Below, piece by piece: positions 13,961 to 64,000 of a stretch of DNA of 64,000 nucleotides. Source of the stretch: Brachyhypopomus gauderio (taxonomy: Eukaryota > Chordata > Actinopteri > Gymnotiformes > Hypopomidae). Both the position numbers and the translations under genes were made by a program. Under the pieces are notes generated by a model. That model searched no databases, was not told where the DNA came from, and saw nothing but the letters and a program-made list of their open reading frames with translations. Every line of letters starts with the position of its first letter. The stretch's first letter is position 1. The stretch is taken from assembly GCF_052324685.1 (NCBI RefSeq), contig NW_027506898.1:338501-402500 (forward strand), read 5' to 3'.

Positions 13961-23956
<9,996 letters not shown>

Positions 23957-37291: not shown

Positions 37292-38262
37292 TGTCACGGT
37301 GAGGCGGCCCCCTACCGGCCGCCTCTGTCCACAGCGGCTGTTGTTGTTGTTGTTTGGTGATGTCATGTGCGTCCCTCAGGTGGGCAGAGCCCGTGATCTG
37401 TCTCACCTGAGGGTCGTTTGTTTGCCTATATATGTCTTGTCTTTGTACCAGTTGACCGCTGGTCAGTATATCCTTAATTTGGATCTTTTGCACGGGTTTT
37501 GGTTTGCACACTTTCTATTAAACCATCCTTTTTCCCTGAGACTTGGCGTGATCACTTCCTTTTAGTTGCTCACCCCTGCCCGTCACAGAATGACCAGCCA
37601 CCCTTCGGAAGCCGTAGAGTCTCTTTTTCTTTCTCCTTTGTTCGTGGTCATGTCTCGTGGTAAGTGTTTGTCTGCGTGGTGTTTTGTTTGAAGAGCTCCG
37701 CCGTGCTTTTGTGTTTTGTGTTTTGTGTGTGTGTGTGTAGCACGGCGAAGACCAAGGCAGTCTGCCCTGAGAAGGCTCTTCGTGTTCGGTGTTTGTTGTG
37801 AGAGTTCCGCCGTGCGTTTGTTTATGTTTGGCACGGCGAGGACCAGGGTGTCTGCCTGGGGAAACTCTCTTGAGTGTGTACGGGTGAACGAGTGGAGGAT
37901 CTGTGTGCGTGCTCGCCTGTTCCGTGTGTGTGACGCGATCACCGCTCGTCACTGTCGCCTCGCTCCCCGTGTGTCTTGTGTTTAATGTGGGGAGCGACTG
38001 CGACTCTGAGCGGCACGTCACTATTATGTGTATGTCGAGCGCGCATGTGTTTGTCCCGCTCGTTTACTGTCTGAGCACTATTTTGTTTGTCTAGTCTTTG
38101 CGTGTTCGTTGTGTCCTAGCGTGCTTGTGAAATGTTATTGTTGCTCATAATTCCACGCATGCTCCTCCCCTTAAATGTGTGTTTGGGGGGGGAACGGCTG
38201 TGGTCCCATGCCATGGGGTATGGCACGGAGGGCGTCTGAGGCGCGTTTGTGTTTTGTGTTTG

Positions 38263-38305
<43 letters not shown>

Positions 38306-39286
38306 TGCAGGTGCTTCTCCTTGGCAGTGTTCCTGGACCTTGTGGGGATCTCTACCTGGCAGGAGCCCCCTTGTGTTGTGGGGTGACCGGAGCCCGGTCA
38401 TGAAGAGCCCCTCCCTAGAGGGCTGGGGCCCCCGGATGTTAGGGGACCATGGGGCTCCGGTCTGAAAAGCTCCTGCTGAGGAGGGAGATCCTCCCTCCTG
38501 CCCGGGGTGACCAGGAGGCCCTTGGGGCTGCTCCCTAGCCCGCGTCGGGGGTGCTCTGGGCCTCGGTCTCTGGCGCTCCTGGGTTGGGTGGAGGAGTCCA
38601 CCTTGCGATGAGAGGCCCCGGGAGGGGTTGGCTCCCCAGGAGGCTGAGGTGACCCCTAGCAGAAGGCAGAGGTCAGCTCTGGGAGGAGGTAGGTCCAGGA
38701 GGTGAAGTAGCCACGCCTTGGAGAGGTAGCCTGCACGCACACACATGCACTAGGGACGAGAGAGGAGCCGTAGCTCCTCGTCCTCACACCGGTGGGGCTC
38801 ACCGGCTGAAGGCCGGTTAGGGCGTGAGGGCCCTGTGACTGACTGGGGCGTGGTTTTGTGTTGTTAACGGCCCGGTCGGTCCAGGGTCTCGCCCGGGGAG
38901 GTGAGCTGTTTAATGTTGTGTGTTTTATGTTCCAGCTCCCGGACGGCAGGAGGTGTGTTCCTGCCTGTCTCTGCCTTCCTGCCCCTTCGTGTTTTGTGTG
39001 CAACCGCTGTGTGCCACACACCCAGTGGAGGGGAGTGCGGCTTGGTGGGGGGGTCTGTCACGGTGAGGCGGCCCCCTACCGGCCGCCTCTTTCCACAGTG
39101 GCTGTTGTTGTTGTTGTTGTTGTTTGGTGACGTCATGTGCGTCCCTCAGATGGGCGGAGCCCGTGATCCGTCTCACCTATATATGTCTTGTCTTTGTACC
39201 AGTTGACCGCTGGTCAGTATATCCTTAATTTTCCCTGAGACTTGGCGTGATCGCTTCCTTTTAGTTGCTCACCCCTGCCCGTCACA
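37292..39286 (+). mobile_element. Non-autonomous LTR retrotransposon, family A copy 2
   Basis: The 5' LTR is 37292-37587 (296 bp) and the 3' LTR 39056-39286 (231 bp), flanked by CAGAT target duplications (37287-37291 and 39287-39291). Sense is plus: TATATAT at 37427-37433, an ATTAAA signal, and a polypurine tract GGTGGGGGGG before 39056. The 3' LTR lacks about 19 bp and about 50 bp relative to the 5' LTR; the larger gap removes the ATTAAA region. The 1.47-kb interior has no gag or pol. The bases after the 5' LTR, GAATGACCAGC (37588-37598), pair at 9 of 11 positions with 37458-37468, starting 31 nt from TATA. Confidence 0.9.
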
Positions 39287-49762: not shown

Positions 49763-50359
49763 TGTCATGGCTGGCTCCACCTTTGTCCTCTTAGTCTGGT
49801 TTCAGTGTTTTTCAGTTCCCTCCTCCTTGTTTGTAACCCCGCCCCTCATTAGTAATCCCAGGTGTTTGTACATAGTTTTCCTTGGTTTTTTCTGTATATA
49901 AACCCTGGATTCTGTGTAGTCTGTTTTGTGCTTCAATCCTACGGTTTGTGTATGTAAGTCTGCGTCTGTTGTTTGGTTTAGTCCTTTGCAAGTTTTTATT
50001 AAATATGAATAACTCACTTACGGATTTGATCCTTGCCTGTTTATAGGGCTGGGTATCGATTCAAATTCCAAGAATCGATCCGATTCTGAAGATTAAGAAT
50101 CGATTTATTTCGATTTAATCCGATTTAATCGATTCGATCCGATTTGATCCAATTTGGGTTTTAGTGTTATTAAAAATGTATTTGAGCTGTTTCCTGACTA
50201 TGTACAGAAGCAACATGTTAAAACTGGTTGTCACGTCTAGCCCCTCCCTCCTCCCTGGTCCCGCCTAGCCCCGCTCCCATTCGTCCATCCGTCTGTCTGT
50301 CACGCCCTCGTCGTCAGTCTCACACACCTGACTCTCGTTTCACCGTCTTGTTTTCAGTG

Positions 50360-50367
50360 TATAAAAA
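50360..50367 (+). promoter_or_regulatory. TATA box in the 5' LTR
   Basis: TATAAAAA lies 30 bp upstream of the predicted RNA start at 50390. The identical word is at 53040-53047 in the 3' LTR. Confidence 0.75.
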
Positions 50368-50389
50368 CCCCCTAGTGTTTTACCCCCGT

Positions 50390-50400
50390 GTCGGTCATTC
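50390..50400 (+). promoter_or_regulatory. Predicted RNA 5' end (self-primer)
   Basis: GTCGGTCATTC starts 30 nt downstream of TATA, where transcription should begin. It is perfectly complementary to 50945-50955 just after the LTR. In Tf1-type elements the first 11 nt of the RNA fold back to prime reverse transcription. Confidence 0.65.
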
Positions 50401-50944
50401 CCTGTACGTGAGTCCCTGGTTGCTTCTCTGTTCTGCTTCCTCCCGTTCGTTCTTGTGTCCTCACTTTTAGTCTAGTTCCCTGTATTTTGTATTGGATTTC
50501 CTTTGTATGTTTGGTTATACTGTTGTGCCTTGTGCTCCTGTTCCCTGTTGCCCTGGTTCCATTGCTACTCATGTGTTTATAGTTGTTGTTGTTATGTTCA
50601 TTTCGTTAGCGTCCCCCAGTTGTTTAGCTGATCCGTATGTTTAAGACTTTTTCTTATGTGTAGTATAGCTCCCTTAGTATACTTACCGTGTTGCTTGTTC
50701 ACCCTCCTATGTTCCCTGTTTTAGTTCTCGTACCCCTTAATATCTTGTAGTTTCTTCGTTCGTATATTTGTCCCCATTATTCTGTTTCCCCCTCAGTAGT
50801 TGTACCCTGTTGTAGCCTTTGTCTTTTGCCCCTAGTAATATAGTTATTCCCTGTGCTGTCTTGTCTGGTTCTGTTGTTTCTATTAAATCCTTCTTTATTG
50901 CATTTGCGTCACTCCTGCTATCTCCCGCCCCGTGAAACGTTACA

Positions 50945-50955
50945 GAATGACCGAC
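50945..50955 (+). promoter_or_regulatory. Putative self-complementary primer-binding site
   Basis: GAATGACCGAC directly abuts the 5' LTR. It lacks the TGG start of tRNA-primed sites and is the exact 11-nt reverse complement of the predicted RNA 5' end. It overlaps the gag-like start codon (ATG 50947-50949). Confidence 0.65.
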
Positions 50956-52920
50956 CTAAGTGTGACGCAGCAAGAGTCTTTTACCTCAGGTAGTCCCTTA
51001 GTTCCTGAGAAAAAGGACTATTTTTTGTCCAACCTGGATGCCCTACAGGCATTACTGGTTAGGGACTCGAGGGGAAACTACGTCACCCTACCGTCGCTAG
51101 CTCATTGCCCGGAGGAATACGATGGGGAGACCGGACCTGCTGACAGCTACATCATGCAGTGTACATTGTATATCAGGTTACTAACATGCCCCAAACCTCC
51201 AGATGACGTCTTGGTTCTGTTTATGCGCTCTCTGCTGAAAGCCAAGGCACTGGAATGGGCGAACTTGGTGCTGTCAAAGCGTATGACTGAAGCACTGACC
51301 GTAGAAGGTTTCTGCAGGTATATGCGCTCCAGGTTCGCTGGTGTCACTGTTCAGCCCCCCTCCCATTTGATTGGGGGTCGTGCAACAGGGGTACCCCCCA
51401 AGGAATTTCTTGTGGGTGGCTGTATCCACATCCAAGGATCCAAGCCGGCCGACCCCGTCGGTCATGTGAAGGGATTCATGGACCACCCCGATGACTGCAT
51501 CCTGGAAGCCACTCCCCAAAGGCCCCCCAAGAATTTTTTGGGGGGACGCAGTGGCCACTCGCCCCAGGAGTGGCCAGCTCGGGCCCGTGATGACGTCGGC
51601 CCGGAGGTTCCGCCCCCTGATGTTGTCGGCCCGGAGGTTCCGCCCCCTGATGTTGTCGGCCCGGAGGTTCCGCCCCCTGATGACGTCGGCCCGGAGGTTC
51701 CGCCCCCTGATGACGTCGGCCCGGAGGTTCCGCCCCCTGATGACGTCGGCCCGGAGGCTCCGCCCCCTGATGACGTCAGCCCGGAGGCTCCGCCCCCTGA
51801 TGACGTCGGCCCGGAGGTTCCGCCCCCTGATGACGTCGGCCCGGAGGTTCCACCCTCCGATGACGTCGGCTCGGCGACCACGCCCTCCGATGACGTCAGT
51901 TCGGCGACCACGCCCTCCGATGACGTCAGCTCGGCGACCACGCCCTCCGATGACGTCAGCTCGGCGACCACGCCCCCCGATGACGTCAGCTCGGCGACCA
52001 CGCCCCCCGATGGCGTCTGCATGGTGAACTCGCCCCCCGATGACGTCTGCACGGCGACGCCGCCGGTTCCCGCTGCTCGCCAGCGGCCCCCGCCTGTTCC
52101 CGCTGCCCGCCAGCGGCCCCCGCCTGTTCCCGCTGCCCGCCAGCGGGCCCCGCCTGTTCCCGCTCCCCGCCAGCGGGCCCCGCCTGTTCCCGCTGCACGC
52201 CAGCGGGCCCCGCCTGTTCCCGCTGCACGCCAGCGGACCCTGCCTGTCTCAGCTGCACGCCCGGCTCCCCAGGACACTCCTCAGCTTACGCCAGCCCCCC
52301 CAGTGACTGCCTTGCCCGCCTGTGGGCCTGGAGCTGGTTTTTTGCTGAACTGTCCGGACACTGTCCCTCCTGTTAACCCTGTTTTACACTCACCTGTGTT
52401 CCCTTTTTTGCCCTGTCCCCTCCCTGGCTTCCTGTTGGTCCCCGTTCCTGTGTGCGTGTCTGTCCGCGTCCGCGTGCCTGTCCCTGTGTCCGTCCTTGGT
52501 GGTGTCCTCCATGTCCCTGTGCCAGTCTCTGTTCCCCAGGTAGTCACCCACTTTGTTCCCGTCCCTGTCTCCGTCGTCCTCCGTCTGTTTGCCTCTGTGT
52601 CCCAGCCTTCCCGAGAGTCCAGTCCTGTTCCCTTGACCCAGTTTTTGTCCAGCCCCTTAGCTCCGCCCCCTGTGCCCGCTCCCCGTTCTGTCTCGTCTGG
52701 CCCCGTTCCCTCGTCGCCACCCGTTCCTTGTCCTGGTCCTCCCCTGCGTCCGGTGTCCGGGCCATTGTGTCCGTCCTGCCCCGTGTCTGTTGTCCCTGCC
52801 CCGGCCTCGCCCACTCGTTTCCCTCTGTTATGGTGTCTCTGTCCCCAGCGTCTGTCCGGCCCTCCCTGGTTGGCGTGCCCCGGAGTTGCACGCCTTGAGG
52901 GGGGGTTATGTCACGTCTAG
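50947..52920 (+). CDS. Gag-like protein with proline-rich repeat extension
   Basis: From the ATG two bases after the LTR, an uninterrupted 657-residue frame runs into the 3' LTR and stops at 52920. Residues about 20-140 resemble a Ty3/gypsy capsid (HCPEEYDGETGPADSYIMQC, then LFMRSLLKAKALEWANLVL). At about 145-205 two PPKEFLVGG / PPKNFLGG motifs flank a short unique stretch. About 16 ten-residue units follow (DDVGPEVPPP, then DDVSSATTPS), then about seven RQR.PPVPAA units. The last ~200 residues are low-complexity, rich in proline, valine and serine, with no zinc knuckle seen. Gag would form particles that package the element RNA. Whether the repeat tail is translated is inference; the open frame through 30-bp repeats partly follows from the repeat length. 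Confidence 0.72.
   Translation: MTDLSVTQQESFTSGSPLVPEKKDYFLSNLDALQALLVRDSRGNYVTLPSLAHCPEEYDGETGPADSYIMQCTLYIRLLTCPKPPDDVLVLFMRSLLKAKALEWANLVLSKRMTEALTVEGFCRYMRSRFAGVTVQPPSHLIGGRATGVPPKEFLVGGCIHIQGSKPADPVGHVKGFMDHPDDCILEATPQRPPKNFLGGRSGHSPQEWPARARDDVGPEVPPPDVVGPEVPPPDVVGPEVPPPDDVGPEVPPPDDVGPEVPPPDDVGPEAPPPDDVSPEAPPPDDVGPEVPPPDDVGPEVPPSDDVGSATTPSDDVSSATTPSDDVSSATTPSDDVSSATTPPDDVSSATTPPDGVCMVNSPPDDVCTATPPVPAARQRPPPVPAARQRPPPVPAARQRAPPVPAPRQRAPPVPAARQRAPPVPAARQRTLPVSAARPAPQDTPQLTPAPPVTALPACGPGAGFLLNCPDTVPPVNPVLHSPVFPFLPCPLPGFLLVPVPVCVSVRVRVPVPVSVLGGVLHVPVPVSVPQVVTHFVPVPVSVVLRLFASVSQPSRESSPVPLTQFLSSPLAPPPVPAPRSVSSGPVPSSPPVPCPGPPLRPVSGPLCPSCPVSVVPAPASPTRFPLLWCLCPQRLSGPPWLACPGVARLEGGLCHV
51588..52260 (+). 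repeat. Three successive arrays with a common 30-bp period
   Basis: The unit GATGACGTCGGCCCGGAGGT plus ten bases repeats about nine times. A variant ending in an ACCACGCCCTCC-type block repeats about five more times. After a short transition, a different unit (CGCCAGCGGCCCCCGCCTGT plus ten bases) repeats about seven times from 52080. All three have a 30-bp period in the same frame. Confidence 0.92.
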
Positions 52921-53961
52921 CCCCTCCCTCCTCCCTGGTCCCGCCTAGCCCCGCTCCCATTCGTCCATCCGTCTGTCTGTCACGCCCTCGTCGTCAGTCT
53001 CACACACCTGACTCTCGTTTCACCGTCTTGTTTTCAGTGTATAAAAACCCCCTAGTGTTTTACCCCCGTGTCGGTCATTCCCTGTACGTGAGTCCCTGGT
53101 TGCTTCTCTGTTCTGCTTCCTCCCGTTCGTTCTTGTGTCCTCACTTTTAGTCTAGTTCCCTGTATTTTGTATTGGATTTCCTTTGTATGTTTGGTTATAC
53201 TGTTGTGCCTTGTGCTCCTGTTCCCTGTTGCCCTGGTTCCATTGCTACTCATGTGTTTATAGTTGTTGTTGTTATGTTCATTTCGTTAGCGTCCCCCAGT
53301 TGTTTAGCTGATCCGTATGTTTAAGACTTTTTCTTATGTGTAGTATAGCTCCCTTAGTATACTTACCGTGTTGCTTGTTCACCCTCCTATGTTCCCTGTT
53401 TTAGTTCTCGTACCCCTTAATATCTTGTAGTTTCTTCGTTCGTATATTTGTCCCCATTATTCTGTTTCCCCCTCAGTAGTTGTACCCTGTTGTAGCCTTT
53501 GTCTTTTGCCCCTAGTAATATAGTTATTCCCTGTGCTGTCTTGTCTGGTTCTGTTGTTTCTATTAAATCCTTCTTTATTGCATTTGCGTCACTCCTGCTA
53601 TCTCCCGCCCCGTGAAACGTTACACTGGTATTATATCGATATTAATCAGCAAATAGTTACTGGTAGTTGGTAGTTACTGATGGCTGGAAGACTGGTGAAA
53701 AGGGTAATCATAAATCTACCTTCAAGAAAGGTAATCCAGGACAATAAACAGAGGACATCTTTGAGGTGTCTATCTGCAACAGTGGATGCCTACTAGGACA
53801 CTAACCACTGCATTATTATTATGATTGAAATAATTAAGAATTCACCCAAAACCTGTTGCTACCAAATGCATTTTTATTTTAAAAGTGCTCACACTTAATA
53901 AACTAAAAGTATAAAATGTAAACGTGTATTTTTCTTTCAAGTGCGAATATAAGAACAGAAC

Positions 53962-55088: not shown

Positions 55089-58838
<3,750 letters not shown>

Positions 58839-60475
58839 ATGCAGGATGATTCACATGACTCTCTGGAAATGGGAGGGGTTTCAAAGAGAGCTGGGCCAAC
58901 AGAACCTCTCAATGGATGCCATGGAAACAGGAACTCCTTGAATAAAGTAAGCACACTGCTGGATTTGACGAATGCAAAAGACCTAGACAACCCCTCACAA
59001 CAAAAAGAGGATGGAAATAAAATAAATGACAACAACCATGAAAAAACACACAAAGACAATAATTATGCCAGAAACAAGGGTAAACAAATGGCGGGTGACA
59101 CCTGTGTTATGGACCATGACAGCCAAAATACTCACAATGACGATTATCTAAGCAACTCTGGAGTCACGCTACCTGGCACTTGCACAGCTACATTCCCTAA
59201 TAGCGACTTTTTTGTTGGCAAGACCACACAGGGCATTAAGCATTACAATGTTGAGCTTGGGGTCGCCAGGACAGAGAGCATCCCGAAGCCTCTGAAGGTA
59301 TGTTCGACCTCCAGGGACACCACAAACACTGTGACGGGTCAAACCGCCAAACCTCATGGTGTCAAAAACAGGAATCTGAACCACCATGGCACCAATCACG
59401 TGCCACTTCCTGAATCCATCATTATTGTCAGCGGCAGAGGGGAAACCTCAGAAGATTCCAGGGCTGTCAGTGCAAATGCTGGTGAGATAGGAGAGTCAGA
59501 AGACATGTTGGAATCTGGGGGTCAGAGCAGAAGAGCAGGTGTTGCCAAAGGCCTGTTGGGCTGTTACCGGGCGGTGCGGTTGGCGTTTCTACGGTGCCTG
59601 GAGGAGACGTCCATAGTGGTGCCAGGCCTGGTGTTGACCATCATGTTCTGTGTTACAATCATCATCATAATCCCCACCACCAGAAAAGTAAGTCTGGGAA
59701 TGAAAGAATGAATTAATGAATCCATTCACCCAAACATGTTAATGTCCTTATAATATGTTTGTCTGCTGACCATAATTACCTGCCGACCATAATAAACCTC
59801 CGTCCATCTAAACTTAAAATGTATCGTTCTTTCTTTTTCTCTTTATTCCCTTCTCTTCTCTTTTCTTCTCTTCTCTTCTCTCTCCCTCTCTGTGTCTAAG
59901 ACATACATCAGTGGGCATGTAGGAGAACTGTCCGTGGTGTGTGTCGTGCTCTGTTTGTGTGTGCCCCTGCTGGTGTTTTTGCCATGTCTGCCTACCCTAC
60001 GTCGGTGCGAGCAAATGCTGGCCCTCTTCATCTGGTCCACACTCTTCATCACTGCCATCGTCTTCATCTTCACTGGCGGAGTCATCACCACATGGGAGCA
60101 AGTCAGTCTCATTTTGGCAGTGCCTCAAATATCTCTAACCCCACTTGGATTTGAGTTTTTGAGTTCTTGTTATTGTTAACTGAAATCCCACGTTTTCTTT
60201 ATTTCTAAAGTCATAGCTGTGGAACATAAATGTAAATACAGCATACATATAAAACACTCAATAACATTACTTAACTCTCTCTTTCTTTTTATATTTCTCT
60301 TAGGTTGCATTTTTTCTCTTTCTCTCTCTGTCAGTATATACGATTCTGCCCCTGACTCTCTCCTGGGCTCTCATCTTCGGCATCGGAGCAAGTCTGTGCC
60401 ACATCATCATCATCAGTGTCTATGTGCCCGTCACCAGACCGGACACACGTGACCTTGCAGTGCAGGTTTGGCAAA

Positions 60476-60572
<97 letters not shown>

Positions 60573-61445
60573 TGGTAATCAGTGATGGCTTAGTTACCTT
60601 GAAAAAGTAATCCGATTACTGATTACTCCTTTTAAAAGTAACTTAGTTACGTTACTGATTACTTGATTTTAAAAGTAACTACGTTAGATTACAATTTACT
60701 TTAGTAGTTACATTCAGCAGCAAAATGAAATTTTCCAATACTCACTTTATTGGAAGTGCATTTTTAACAGTAACAATGTATTGAAGCAGGTTCGGTAACC
60801 GAGTCAGAAACTGCTTAATCCAAAAATCCCGAGGAGGGAAACTATTGATAACGCAACCCTGGCGCGCGCAGGCTCTCACAGGGTCGCGCGCAGCGTGCGG
60901 AGTCGAGCGCTACGGTCAGACGCAAAAGTAGAACTGAGCCAAGAAGTAAGCAAAAATATATATTTTTACTAGGGAAAATAAAAATAGTAACGCACAGTTA
61001 CTTGGATAAGTAACTTTAATCTGATTACTGGACTGGAAATAGTAGCGCGTTATATTACTCGTTACCGAAAAAAGTGGTAAGATTAGAGTAACGCGTTACT
61101 GACATCACTGCTTGTAATGGTTAAAATGTTAAGGTATATCAAATGAAAATGTATTCAAATGGGCAACAGCTAGATATCTGTCTAGATAACACAAAAATAA
61201 TACATTAACGGAGACACAGATCACAACAGACACACAAATAAGCACACATATACAAACAAGCAAACAAACTTGCACACACACTCGCCTGCTTAAAACCTTT
61301 GTAGCTGGTGAGCTGTCAGACACACATGCTTGCATCTGCAGCCTCTCTCATGTCCCCCTTCCCTGACTTATTCAAAGTGCTTTCCTAATGCATAAAACAT
61401 GCAAATGCATTCAAAACAATCATGTGCCAAAATTCATGCTTCATG

Positions 61446-61536
<91 letters not shown>

Positions 61537-61691
61537 TGGTAGCGAATGCTGTGCTCTTTGCGTGTGTGAACTGTGTTGGTTTCTTCCACCTCTGGCTCAG
61601 TGAACACGCGCGCAGGACGTCTACCAAGAACCGAGAGACGTTCAGCAGCACACGCTTCAAACGGGCCAGACAGCAGCGTGACCAGGTACAC

Positions 61692-61771
<80 letters not shown>

Positions 61772-62847
61772 ACACACGCACACACACACACACTTTCACA
61801 CACGCACGCACACACACTCACACACACTCTCACACATGCACACACACACACTCTCACACATGCATGCACACACACACACTCACACGCACACACAAAAACA
61901 CTCACACACACACTCTCACACACACTCTCACACATACACATGCACGCACGCACACACTCTCACAAACACACTCTCACACACACATGCACACACACACACA
62001 CTCACCCACACACACACACTCACACATGCACGCACACACACACTCACACACACTCTCACACATATTCATACACACACACACTCGCACACGCGTGCACACA
62101 CATGGATGCACACACACACACACACACCCGCACACTCGCACACACACACTCTCACACATATTCATACACACACACACTCGCACACGCGTGCACACACATG
62201 GATGCACACACACACACACACACTCTCACACACACACTGTCACACACACACTCACACAAACCTATGTGCACACACTTACTGCCTCCCAAACACATAGACA
62301 TGCTGGAATGTTGTACGGCTTGACCAACTTCCAAAATGCCTAGACCAATGGAAATGAAATGAAATGAAATGAAATGAAATGTGCCATATTTTGTCAATTG
62401 TGATTTTTACACCCCAATCGAAATTTGTCCTCCGCTTTTAACCCATCTGTGCAGTCAGAACACACACACACACTAGTGATTACTAGGGGGCTGTGGATCA
62501 CACGTGCCCAGAGCGGTGGGCAGCCCTAGCCCGGCGCCCGGGGAGCAGTTGGGGTTAGGTGCCTTGCTCAAGGACACCTCAGTCATGGCCTGTCTGGGAA
62601 TCGAACCCACGACCCTCCTGTCACAAGTCCAGTTCCCTAACCGCCAAGCCATGACTGCAATGGAATGATGTTTTCAACTTTTGCCCCACCCCTTCCTCCA
62701 GGAGCACCTCCTTCTCTCTGTGTTGCCACTGTACATCGCTAAGGAGCTGAAAGAGGAGATTGTCAAGAAATTATCAGACAAATGTACTGGAGCTGACAAC
62801 CAACCAAACTTCCACAGTTTATACATCAAGCAGCACAAAGATGTCAG
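58839..62847 (+). CDS. Membrane adenylyl cyclase, N-terminal half of cassette 1 (ADCY4-like, partial)
   Basis: Five exons join in phase: 58839-59687, 59901-60101, 60304-60465, 61536-61685 and 62702-62847. They give 502 codons plus two bases; the gene continues past the window. Residues 1-255 are a long polar, cytosolic N-terminus. Six membrane helices follow: about 258-278, 293-311, 322-345, 351-372, 373-396 and 405-424. The linker then reads [20 protein letters not shown] and [13 protein letters not shown], the characteristic lead-in to the first catalytic domain (C1a), which should come next. Such enzymes turn ATP into cAMP at the plasma membrane under G-protein control. The [10 protein letters not shown] wording fits the ADCY2/4/7 group, and synteny with ripk3 points to adcy4. 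The N-terminus is far longer than usual for that group, so the isoform stays open and the start ATG is provisional. Confidence 0.85.
60478..60570 (+). repeat. (CA)n microsatellite, cyclase intron 3
   Basis: About 46 CA units begin 12 bp after the exon 3 donor at 60466. Confidence 0.97.
60580..61110. mobile_element. hAT-type MITE in cyclase intron 3
   Basis: It starts CAGTGATGGCTTAGTTAC and ends GTAACGCGTTACTGACATCACTG, ends that pair as inverted repeats. Flanks CTGGTAAT and CTTGTAAT agree at seven of eight bases. The interior is full of AGTAAC/GTTACT words and has no ORF. Confidence 0.8.
61447..61533 (+). repeat. (CT)n tract forming the exon 4 polypyrimidine tract
   Basis: About 43 CT units run directly into the CAG acceptor of cyclase exon 4 (exon starts 61536). 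On the opposite strand it is (GA)n. Confidence 0.95.
61686..62280 (+). repeat. CA-rich complex satellite, cyclase intron 4
   Basis: (CA)n from 61690 grades into CACTCTCACACA variants. It includes a roughly 97-bp duplication (ATATTCATACAC...CGCGTGCACACACATGGATG) at about 62060 and 62157. Long HTHT-type ORFs here are repeat artefacts. Confidence 0.9.
62345..62661 (-). mobile_element. tRNA-derived SINE, full length, with (ATTTC)n tail
   Basis: On the minus strand it starts TGCAGTCATGGC near 62660, with the B-box GGTTCGATTCC. It runs through the body shared with 35846-36076 and ends in about six ATTTC units (GAAAT on the plus strand, 62350-62380). It sits 40 bp upstream of cyclase exon 5. Confidence 0.85.
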
Positions 62848-63425
62848 GTGACAGCGCAGAGAGTCATGCATGCACACACGCAGTCTAAAGGTTAAGAAGT
62901 GTATATGTGTTACATATATTGTACATTCAAGGGAGGTGGTCATTGCTGAGTGAATGATTGTATTTCACAATGCTAGCTGTCAAGGACTCTGGAATCTCAG
63001 GAAGAAAACAACAGAACAGTTTACATGACATGACAAACTGCCTTGATTGTTCTACTGTCCTGGGTACAGTATGACACACTGGTTAGATGTTTAGCTCAAG
63101 GCACTCCCATTAACACGCTGCTGTTCTTTTGACAATCTAAGGGAAATACTATGAACTAAAATAAGCAAAAGTCTCTCTAACAAGGAAGATAAAAGGAATG
63201 AATTGCCTAAATATCTGAGACAATCCAAGGCCTCAATTACCTGACATTTCAGTGTGTGATTCCTTCACAGCTCCTATGAGTAGACACACACGCACATTCC
63301 ATAGACCAGACGTCATGCATCAATCTAGTAACCAAATAACTTTCACATTAATTTTGTTAACTTACAATATTGCTAACATGCTAACACATTAATGATGAAA
63401 CAATAAGATGGGACTGTAAAGGCCT
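62848..63425. other. Start of cyclase intron 5
   Basis: Unique-looking intronic DNA; no exon recognised. The next coding exon should begin with one base to complete the codon split at 62847. Confidence 0.45.
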
Positions 63426-63429
63426 ATAT

Positions 63430-64000
63430 GTGTATTCCCTGTGTGTGTATTCCCTGCAGTATTCCCAGTGTGTGTTTATTCCCTTCAGTATTCCCTGTGT
63501 GTGTGTTCCCTGCAGTATTCCCTGTGTGTGTATTTCATACAGTATTCCCTGTGTGTGTATTTCCTGCAGTATTCCCTGTGTGTATTCCCTGCAGTATTCC
63601 CAGTGTGTGTGTATTCCCTGCAGTATTCTCTGTGTGTGTATTTCCTGCAGTATTCCCTGTGTGTGTATTTACTGCAGTATTCCCTGTGTGTGTATTTCCT
63701 GTAGTATTCCCTGTGTGTGTATTCCCTGCAGTATTCCCTGTGTGTGTATTCCCTGCAGTATTCCCTGTGTGTGTATTTCATACAGTATTCCCTGTGTGTG
63801 TATTCCCTGCAGTATTCCCTGTGTGTGTATTCCCTGCAGTATTCCCTGTGTGTGTATTTCATACAGTATTCCCTGTGTGTGTATTCCCTGCAGTATTCCC
63901 TGTGTGTGTATTCCCTGCAGTATTCCCTGTGTGTGTATTTCATACAGTATTCCCTGTGTGTGTATTCCCTGCAGTATTCCCTGTATGTGTATTTACTGCA
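63430..64000 (+). repeat. 27-bp minisatellite with 81-bp higher-order pattern
   Basis: The unit TATTCCCTGTGTGTGTATTCCCTGCAG repeats to the window edge, about 20 times. A TTTCATACAG variant recurs at about 63776, 63857 and 63938, exactly 81 bp (three units) apart, showing higher-order amplification. Period 27 keeps a nine-residue ORF open on both strands, an artefact. Confidence 0.93.

What the first reader, a model, noticed from the sequence alone, without database searches (positions are those of the whole stretch)
50229..53624. LTR element whose primer site is an exact 11-nt complement of its own predicted RNA 5' end
Seen: TATAAAAA at 50360; GTCGGTCATTC at 50390-50400, 30 nt later; GAATGACCGAC at 50945-50955 directly after the 5' LTR. 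The two 11-mers are perfect reverse complements and the match ends at the 12th base. There is no TGG tRNA-type primer site. Known: Tf1 of fission yeast, and by relation sushi-type elements, prime with the first 11 nt of their own RNA. Inference: this fish element self-primes.
Basis: partly seen in the sequence, partly recalled or inferred. Interest (0 to 1): 0.85.

Follow-up and report, generated by a model that had tools for sequence, protein, structure and literature searches.

The report
Retrotransposon that primes on itself
A small mobile element in this genome carries a copying start site that pairs with the predicted front end of its own RNA, as do many of its relatives in the same genome, which fits a known but rarely documented way for such elements to start copying themselves without a cellular tRNA.

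Summary
The element at 50229-53624 has identical 716-bp LTRs, a 5-bp target duplication, and an 11-mer right after the 5' LTR (50945-50955) that is the exact reverse complement of the 11-mer 30 nt after the TATA box (50390-50400). Of 50 Gag loci found by Gag homology, 44 have an ACA[G/T]AAT junction before gag; of these 44, 40 have a self-complement of at least 9/11 within 420 nt and 36 of at least 10/11 (decoys: 14 and 0 of 352). Across nine distinct primer/PBS pairs, six of eleven base pairs change on both sides. A second element in the window (16509-18612, minus strand) has the same design. Two corrections: position 11 pairs in only 11 of 40 loci, so the conserved primer is about 9-10 nt; and the element has no Pol, so enzymes must come from elsewhere. 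Pol ends of two relatives carry chromodomains, as in Tf1/sushi chromoviruses, where self-priming is published. It is a new member of a known kind. The Gag start codon inside the primer-binding site is the most novel detail.

The parts
50224..50228 (.). Target site duplication CTGGT, left (right copy 53625-53629)
50229..50944 (+). 5' LTR, 716 bp, TGTCACG...CGTTACA
   Evidence: identical to 52909-53624
50360..50367 (+). TATA box TATAAAAA
50390..50400 (+). Self-primer GTCGGTCATTC, predicted RNA 5' end (repeated at 53070-53080 in the 3' LTR)
   Evidence: same sequence in 15 of 15 clade junctions examined
50882..50887 (+). Poly(A) signal-like ATTAAA near the LTR end
   Evidence: read from the sequence
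50904..50912 (+). U5 arm TTGCGTCAC of the helix that flanks the PBS
   Evidence: 9 bp with one G-U; P 0.04-0.05
50945..50955 (+). Primer-binding site GAATGACCGAC
   Evidence: pairing probability with the primer 0.95-0.97 for nt 1-9
50962..50970 (+). Downstream arm GTGACGCAG, partner of 50904-50912
50947..52920 (+). Open reading frame, Gag-like N-terminus; its ATG lies inside the PBS; no Pol domain found
   Evidence: DUF4939, 18.4 bits for the N-terminal piece and 15.5 for the whole frame, both below the 29-bit cut-off; tblastn to other Gag loci
51489..52299 (+). Tandem repeats with a 30-nt unit inside the frame
52897..52905 (+). Polypurine tract GAGGGGGGG (followed by TTA and the 3' LTR)
   Evidence: same tract before the LTR in L030, L032, L033, L038, L042, L044, L046, L049, L051
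52909..53624 (+). 3' LTR
16509..18612 (-). Second element of this design (E2): LTRs 18316-18612 and 16509-16805, 297 bp, 0 differences, TSD ACGGT
18436..18446 (-). E2 self-primer GCTGGTCATTA (10 of 11 pair)
18305..18315 (-). E2 primer-binding site GAATGACCAGC
37292..39286 (+). Diverged copy of E2 (C3): primer GCTGGTCAGTA in both LTRs, PBS GAATGACCAGC at 37588

Best explanation
The element is a recently inserted, non-autonomous LTR retrotransposon related to the Tf1/sushi self-priming group. Its RNA is predicted to start at 50390. The first ~10 nt fold back onto the site just after the 5' LTR; a partner-encoded RT/RNase H would cut the RNA behind that duplex and extend the freed 5' fragment into U5. 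A second helix between U5 and the sequence after the PBS, crossing the primer helix as in a pseudoknot, would hold the complex. Shown here: the sequences, the copies, the covariation, the complementarity of the flanking arms. Inferred: RNA start, folding, cleavage, priming, and supply of enzymes in trans.
For: Exact 11-bp complement at the TATA-predicted start. Gag homology search without reference to primer or PBS, 50 of 150 loci fetched: 40 of 44 junctions carry a self-complement of 9/11 or more, 36 of 10/11 or more; decoys 14 and 0 of 352. Nine distinct primer/PBS rows: 93.9% of cells paired against 75.4% in shuffles, covariation score 0.604 against 0.204 (0/500 shuffles reach it) and at most 0.101 when slid by 1-3 columns; six of eleven pairs change on both sides. 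In 40 of 40 loci the primer lies 26-30 nt after a TATA-like or A+T-rich motif, from a loose list made after seeing the sequences. Second family in the same window. U5 helix across the PBS with P<0.05 in 9 of 12 representatives, several with unrelated arms. Integrase with chromodomain in one relative's Pol end, chromodomain in another's. Published precedent (passages).
Against: No RNA 5' end was measured. Position 11 pairs in only 11 of 40 loci. Ten of the 50 Gag loci do not show the arrangement: 6 without the junction motif, 4 without a good primer within 420 nt; truncation is possible but was not shown. C3 has a primer mismatch at nt 9 in both LTRs with an unchanged PBS, and its U5 helix is not better than chance (P 0.35). 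In E2 the predicted primer:PBS pairing probability is only about 0.07. In E1 the nested fold gives probability 0 for the U5 helix, which it cannot show together with the primer helix. The third 'pretzel' duplex is not better than chance in E1 (P 0.53) and only suggestive in E2 (P 0.02). Two of five covariation measures do not beat the shuffles. No Pol domain was found in E1.
Confidence: 0.88

Rival explanations
1. A tRNA or tRNA fragment primes, and the complementarity is incidental.
For: Most LTR elements are tRNA-primed (recalled; for plants, passages). An internal tRNA segment was not excluded, because no tRNA set of this genome was compared and ARAGORN found no tRNA gene in the window.
Against: No TGG in the 31 bases shown after the LTR in E1 or in E2. 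A tRNA does not explain why the PBS changes in step with the element's own LTR sequence.
Confidence: 0.04
2. The 5' end and the region after the LTR pair for another purpose, such as translation control, dimerisation or packaging, and not for priming.
For: The PBS contains the Gag ATG in E1; in several relatives the Gag frame appears to start in the LTR and reads through the PBS. Folding predicts strong pairing in E1.
Against: The site sits exactly at the LTR edge, where a primer must sit, and no tRNA-type site is seen there. Both roles may coexist.
Confidence: 0.06
3. The complement is a chance or inherited feature of one family without function.
For: Within the E1 clade both 11-mers are nearly invariant, so that clade alone gives no covariation.
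Against: Covariation across families and decoys 0 of 352 at 10/11.
Confidence: 0.02

Closest known systems
Tf1/sushi group chromoviruses (Tf1, Tf2, Tj1, sushi-ichi; vertebrate members of Butler et al. 2001, a paper I could not read)
   Same: Primer-binding site complementary to the RNA 5' end, at the LTR edge; a helix beside the PBS; LTR termini fit the Sushi motifs TGTYANR and CNTNACA (passages). One relative in this genome has integrase plus chromodomain, another a chromodomain.
   Different: This copy has only a Gag-like frame with tandem repeats and no Pol domain found; the Gag ATG is inside the PBS; pairing at nt 11 is mostly absent in the loci sampled.
TRIM/LARD-type non-autonomous LTR elements
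   Same: Intact LTRs, PBS and PPT, no Pol domain; several short copies (LTR spacing 2,560-3,129 bp).
   Different: Keeps a long open frame with a Gag-like N-terminus; a self-complement in place of a tRNA site. The bivalve TRIM paper found no canonical PBS, mentions self-priming of other elements, and proposes no clear mechanism (passages).
rGmr1-type fish Ty3/gypsy elements
   Same: LTR termini also fit TGTNANR / CGTNACA; mean training LTR length 695.
   Different: rGmr1 is non-chromoviral with integrase before RT; the two relatives sampled here carry a chromodomain.

Membership tests
Tf1/sushi self-priming group | PBS complementary to the predicted RNA 5' end | tested here: met
Tf1/sushi self-priming group | RNA demonstrably starts at the primer and is cut to release it | not testable with these tools
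   needs RACE and cDNA end mapping
Tf1/sushi self-priming group | Integrase with C-terminal chromodomain | tested here: inconclusive
   no Pol domain in this element; present in L123 (rve, SH3_Tf2-1, Chromo) and, as a chromodomain piece, in L122. These lie, by position, downstream of the Gag loci L075 and L072, which this element's Gag matches
Tf1/sushi self-priming group | Helix between U5 and the sequence after the PBS | tested here: met
   as complementarity only: E1 P 0.04-0.05, E2 P 0.0005; 9 of 12 representatives below 0.05; not in C3 (P 0.35)
Tf1/sushi self-priming group | Third 'pretzel' duplex upstream of the PBS | tested here: inconclusive
   E1 P 0.53, E2 P 0.02
Tf1/sushi self-priming group | Gag related to the Gag of chromodomain elements (DUF4939) | tested here: met
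   tblastn to L082 45% over 51 aa, E 1e-9, and to L075; DUF4939 itself 18.4 bits, below its cut-off of 29
TRIM/LARD-type non-autonomous LTR element | LTRs, PBS and PPT without Pol, multiple copies | tested here: met
rGmr1-type element | Integrase upstream of RT, no chromodomain | tested here: inconclusive
   no Pol domain in this element; two relatives have a chromodomain; their RT order was not examined

The most novel reading that the evidence does not exclude
The priming fold doubles as a switch between translation and reverse transcription. In the E1 clade the Gag start codon is part of the primer-binding site; in other families the Gag frame appears to start in the LTR and read through the PBS, or starts within a few codons after it. 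An RNA whose 5' end is annealed to the PBS could then hardly be translated, so each RNA would be committed either to protein or to copying. The conserved primer would be 9-10 nt, with the first base after the LTR as a spacer.
Probability: 0.2. Interest if true: 0.6.

Novelty: new member of a known kind. Interest (0 to 1): 0.42.

Why it matters
Self-priming was demonstrated for fission yeast Tf1 and has been implicated in vertebrate elements (passages). This genome supplies compensatory-change evidence, several families in one host, and copies with identical LTRs, so the mechanism could be tested in an animal. It also suggests that pairing at nt 11 is dispensable, and that gag start and primer site overlap, which the passages I read do not mention (I could not read the original papers).

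Tried and rejected
Gag homologues in IMG/VR and in the 5.8-billion protein set gave none. PDB sequence search gave none. Pattern scans of viral contigs and genome contigs gave 4, 0, 6 and 7 hits (L001-L017); I took them for chance matches because the patterns are short and the genome contigs titles are bacterial, and did not inspect the sequences. Some minus-strand Gag loci were first read in the wrong orientation; this was redone, and one search uses the corrected orientation. The idea that the PBS ATG is always the Gag start was rejected: in L066, L070, L076, L119, L121, L093, L078 and L090 it is out of the Gag frame. I looked for the original papers on self-priming (PMC1369541, PMC109269, PMC230564, PMC1563812, doi 10.1007/s002390010154): none is held, so what they show is taken from later papers. 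Papers: PMC10085805, PMC6317226, PMC4600332, PMC6934838 passages only; PMC3601003 passages and its Sushi section; others search listings only. A search for self-primer + primer binding site + retrotransposon + start codon found 0 papers; self-priming + primer binding site + LTR retrotransposon + zebrafish found 0; the library says that most subscription papers are missing.
Full report
WHAT IS THERE. The finding is accurate in its coordinates. Two identical 716-bp LTRs (50229-50944, 52909-53624) begin TGTCACG, end CGTTACA and are flanked by the 5-bp duplication CTGGT. TATAAAAA is at 50360; 30 nt later comes GTCGGTCATTC (50390-50400); directly after the 5' LTR comes GAATGACCGAC (50945-50955), its exact reverse complement, ending at the 12th base. 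A polypurine tract GAGGGGGGG (52897-52905) precedes the 3' LTR. The frame 50947-52920 is open, begins with a Gag-like N-terminus and runs through 30-nt repeats. Pfam finds only a weak DUF4939 match (18.4 bits for the N-terminal piece, 15.5 for the whole frame, cut-off 29), a weaker Ty3_capsid match (10.8 bits), and no Pol domain. I therefore call it non-autonomous.

CHANCE. No other site in the LTR matches better than 8 of 11. In 2000 dinucleotide shuffles of the LTR, none reached 11/11 and 18 reached 10/11 anywhere in the LTR. A window-wide scan with TATA spacing and the CA rule gave one 11/11 pair, this one, and five sites (six rows) at 10/11 or better; eight block-shuffled controls gave 0 to 8 rows each and one 11/11 in total. 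So the single-copy evidence is good but not crushing; relatives decide.

A SECOND ELEMENT IN THE WINDOW. One of the 10/11 sites lies, on the minus strand, in an element with 297-bp LTRs (18316-18612, 16509-16805; 0 differences; TSD ACGGT), PBS GAATGACCAGC and, 29-31 nt after TATATA, GCTGGTCATTA. For this LTR, 12 of 5000 shuffles reach 10/11 anywhere. Compared with the first element, PBS bases 9-10 changed from GA to AG and primer bases 2-3 from TC to CT. A diverged copy (37292-39286) has GCTGGTCAGTA in both LTRs and the same PBS, so a mismatch at nt 9 probably existed when it inserted.

THE ELEMENT'S OWN CLADE. A genome search with the LTR listed 44 matches (1079 candidates, 40 scored). In 15 junctions of a 5' LTR with the internal part, the window's included, the primer is GTCGGTCATTC in 15 of 15; the PBS is GAATGACCGAC in 10 and TAATGACCGAC in 5 (L039, L043, L050, L052, L063), where position 11 cannot pair. 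One further LTR, L055, has a changed primer (GTTGGTCATT) and no junction in view. Both 11-mers are kept while Gag has drifted to 51-59% identity in L039, L043, L050, L052 and L060. This clade shows constraint but no covariation, apart from the loss of pair 11.

COVARIATION TEST. To sample without looking at primer or PBS, I searched the genome with DUF4939 (150 matches listed, 1339 candidates) and examined upstream DNA for 50 of the 150 (L066-L115), later 6 more chosen for other scores or frame lengths (L116-L121). Of the 50, 44 have ACA[G/T]AAT at 100-260 nt before the Gag match and 6 have not (L079, L086, L091, L096, L097, L101). Of the 44, 40 have a complement of at least 9/11 starting within 420 nt upstream (36 at 10/11 or more, one of them 11/11); L069, L077, L088 and L095 have not. 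Decoy 11-mers taken after the PBS in the same loci gave 14 of 352 at 9/11 or more and 0 of 352 at 10/11 or more. Paired counts by primer position, of 40: 40, 39, 40, 39, 38, 40, 40, 40, 40, 30, 11. Many of these loci are close copies of one another, so they are not 40 independent events. Of the six extra loci, five have 10/11 or 11/11 and one (L120) 8/11. The sequences fall into clearly different types: GTCGGTCATTC/GAATGACCGAC, GCTGGTCATTA/GAATGACCAGC, GCTGCACATTG or ...TTC/GAATGTGCAGC, GCTGCGCATAC or ...TTT/GAATGCGCAGC, GCGAAGTATTG/GAATACTTCGC or AAATACTTCGC. On nine distinct rows, 93.9% of cells pair (75.4% in shuffles), 20 cells change on both sides (6.3 in shuffles), covariation is 0.604 (0.204; 0/500) and at most 0.101 when the partner is slid; the two measures that count pairs and types do not beat the shuffles (63/500 and 398/500). 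Those rows were picked as distinct types, and the primer in each was found by best match, so the decoy test is the fairer control against search bias.

FOLD. RNA folding of 50390-51050 pairs primer nt 1-9 with the PBS at probability 0.95-0.97, nt 10 at 0.86 and nt 11 at 0.58. A second possible helix joins U5 (50904-50912) with 50962-50970; it crosses the primer helix, so a nested folding program cannot show both, and gives it probability 0. Its counterpart in E2 is GAGACTTGGCG:CGCCGAGTCTC, and other families have other arms at about the same place. Best-helix P is below 0.05 in 9 of 12 representatives and not in L070, L090 and L075 (500 mononucleotide shuffles each; the representatives are not independent, L093, L118 and L066 having nearly the same arms); in the diverged copy C3 it is 0.35. 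This resembles the published description of duplexes beside the PBS in Tf1-like RNAs (passages). The third published duplex is not supported in E1 (P 0.53) and weakly in E2 (P 0.02). In E2 the primer:PBS pairing probability is only about 0.07, because other folds compete; in C3 it is 0.55-0.68 for nt 1-8.

RELATIVES. The Gag of this element matches other DUF4939 loci (L082: 45% over 51 aa, E 1e-9). A Pol end fetched beyond L075 (L123) has integrase, a Tf2-1-like SH3 domain and a chromodomain; one beyond L072 (L122) has a chromodomain, in another frame than its integrase-like stretch. That these Pol ends belong to those Gag loci rests on position and frame length. They are of chromovirus type, the kind in which self-priming is published, vertebrates included (passages). 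An autonomous partner with this element's own primer type was not found in the loci examined.

GAG START AND PRIMER SITE. In this clade the first Gag codon is inside the PBS (GA-ATG-ACC-GAC), and protein similarity between copies begins at that residue. In L066, L070, L076, L119, L121, L093 and L078 the Gag frame has an M-D/E-N-K start candidate in the LTR and reads through the PBS, its PBS ATG being out of frame; in L116 and L117 the first ATG in the Gag frame shown follows the PBS. In L066, L070, L119 and L121 the D/E-N-K codons lie on the AATAAA signal (sequences). Thus Gag initiation and priming would compete for one stretch of RNA. That this is a switch is inference.

VERDICT. It is a new non-autonomous member of a known kind.

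Noticed in passing
L066, L070, L119, L121 (LTR just before the PBS); frame also in L076, L078, L093: The Gag frame appears to begin inside the LTR with M-D/E-N-K and to read through the primer-binding site; in the first four its codons overlap the AATAAA poly(A) signal.
   Followed up: partly
window 50945; L039, L043, L050, L052, L063, L117: The first base after the LTR (G, T or A) mostly does not pair with primer nt 11, as if it were a spacer between LTR end and primer site.
   Followed up: partly
window 50390-50946: Six ATGs lie in the predicted leader before the Gag ATG at 50947, which ordinary scanning would have to pass.
   Followed up: no
window 18200-18315 (minus strand): E2 has a 33-codon frame from the PBS ATG, of the same length in the diverged copy at 37588, that contains a GTGGTAAGT sequence resembling a splice donor (the resemblance is recalled).
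   Followed up: no
window 51489-52299: 30-nt tandem repeats inside the Gag-like frame; copies differ in size (LTR spacing 2,560-3,129 bp), perhaps through repeat number.
   Followed up: no
L056-L062 against window 50229-50440: LTR variants match in the first 190-212 bp (95-99%) but were not matched over the rest of the LTR, which suggests exchange of U3 between families.
   Followed up: no
window 63388-63981 and several blocks in 55969-62270: 27-nt tandem repeats at the window's end and arrays of 8-14-nt spaced repeats.
   Followed up: no
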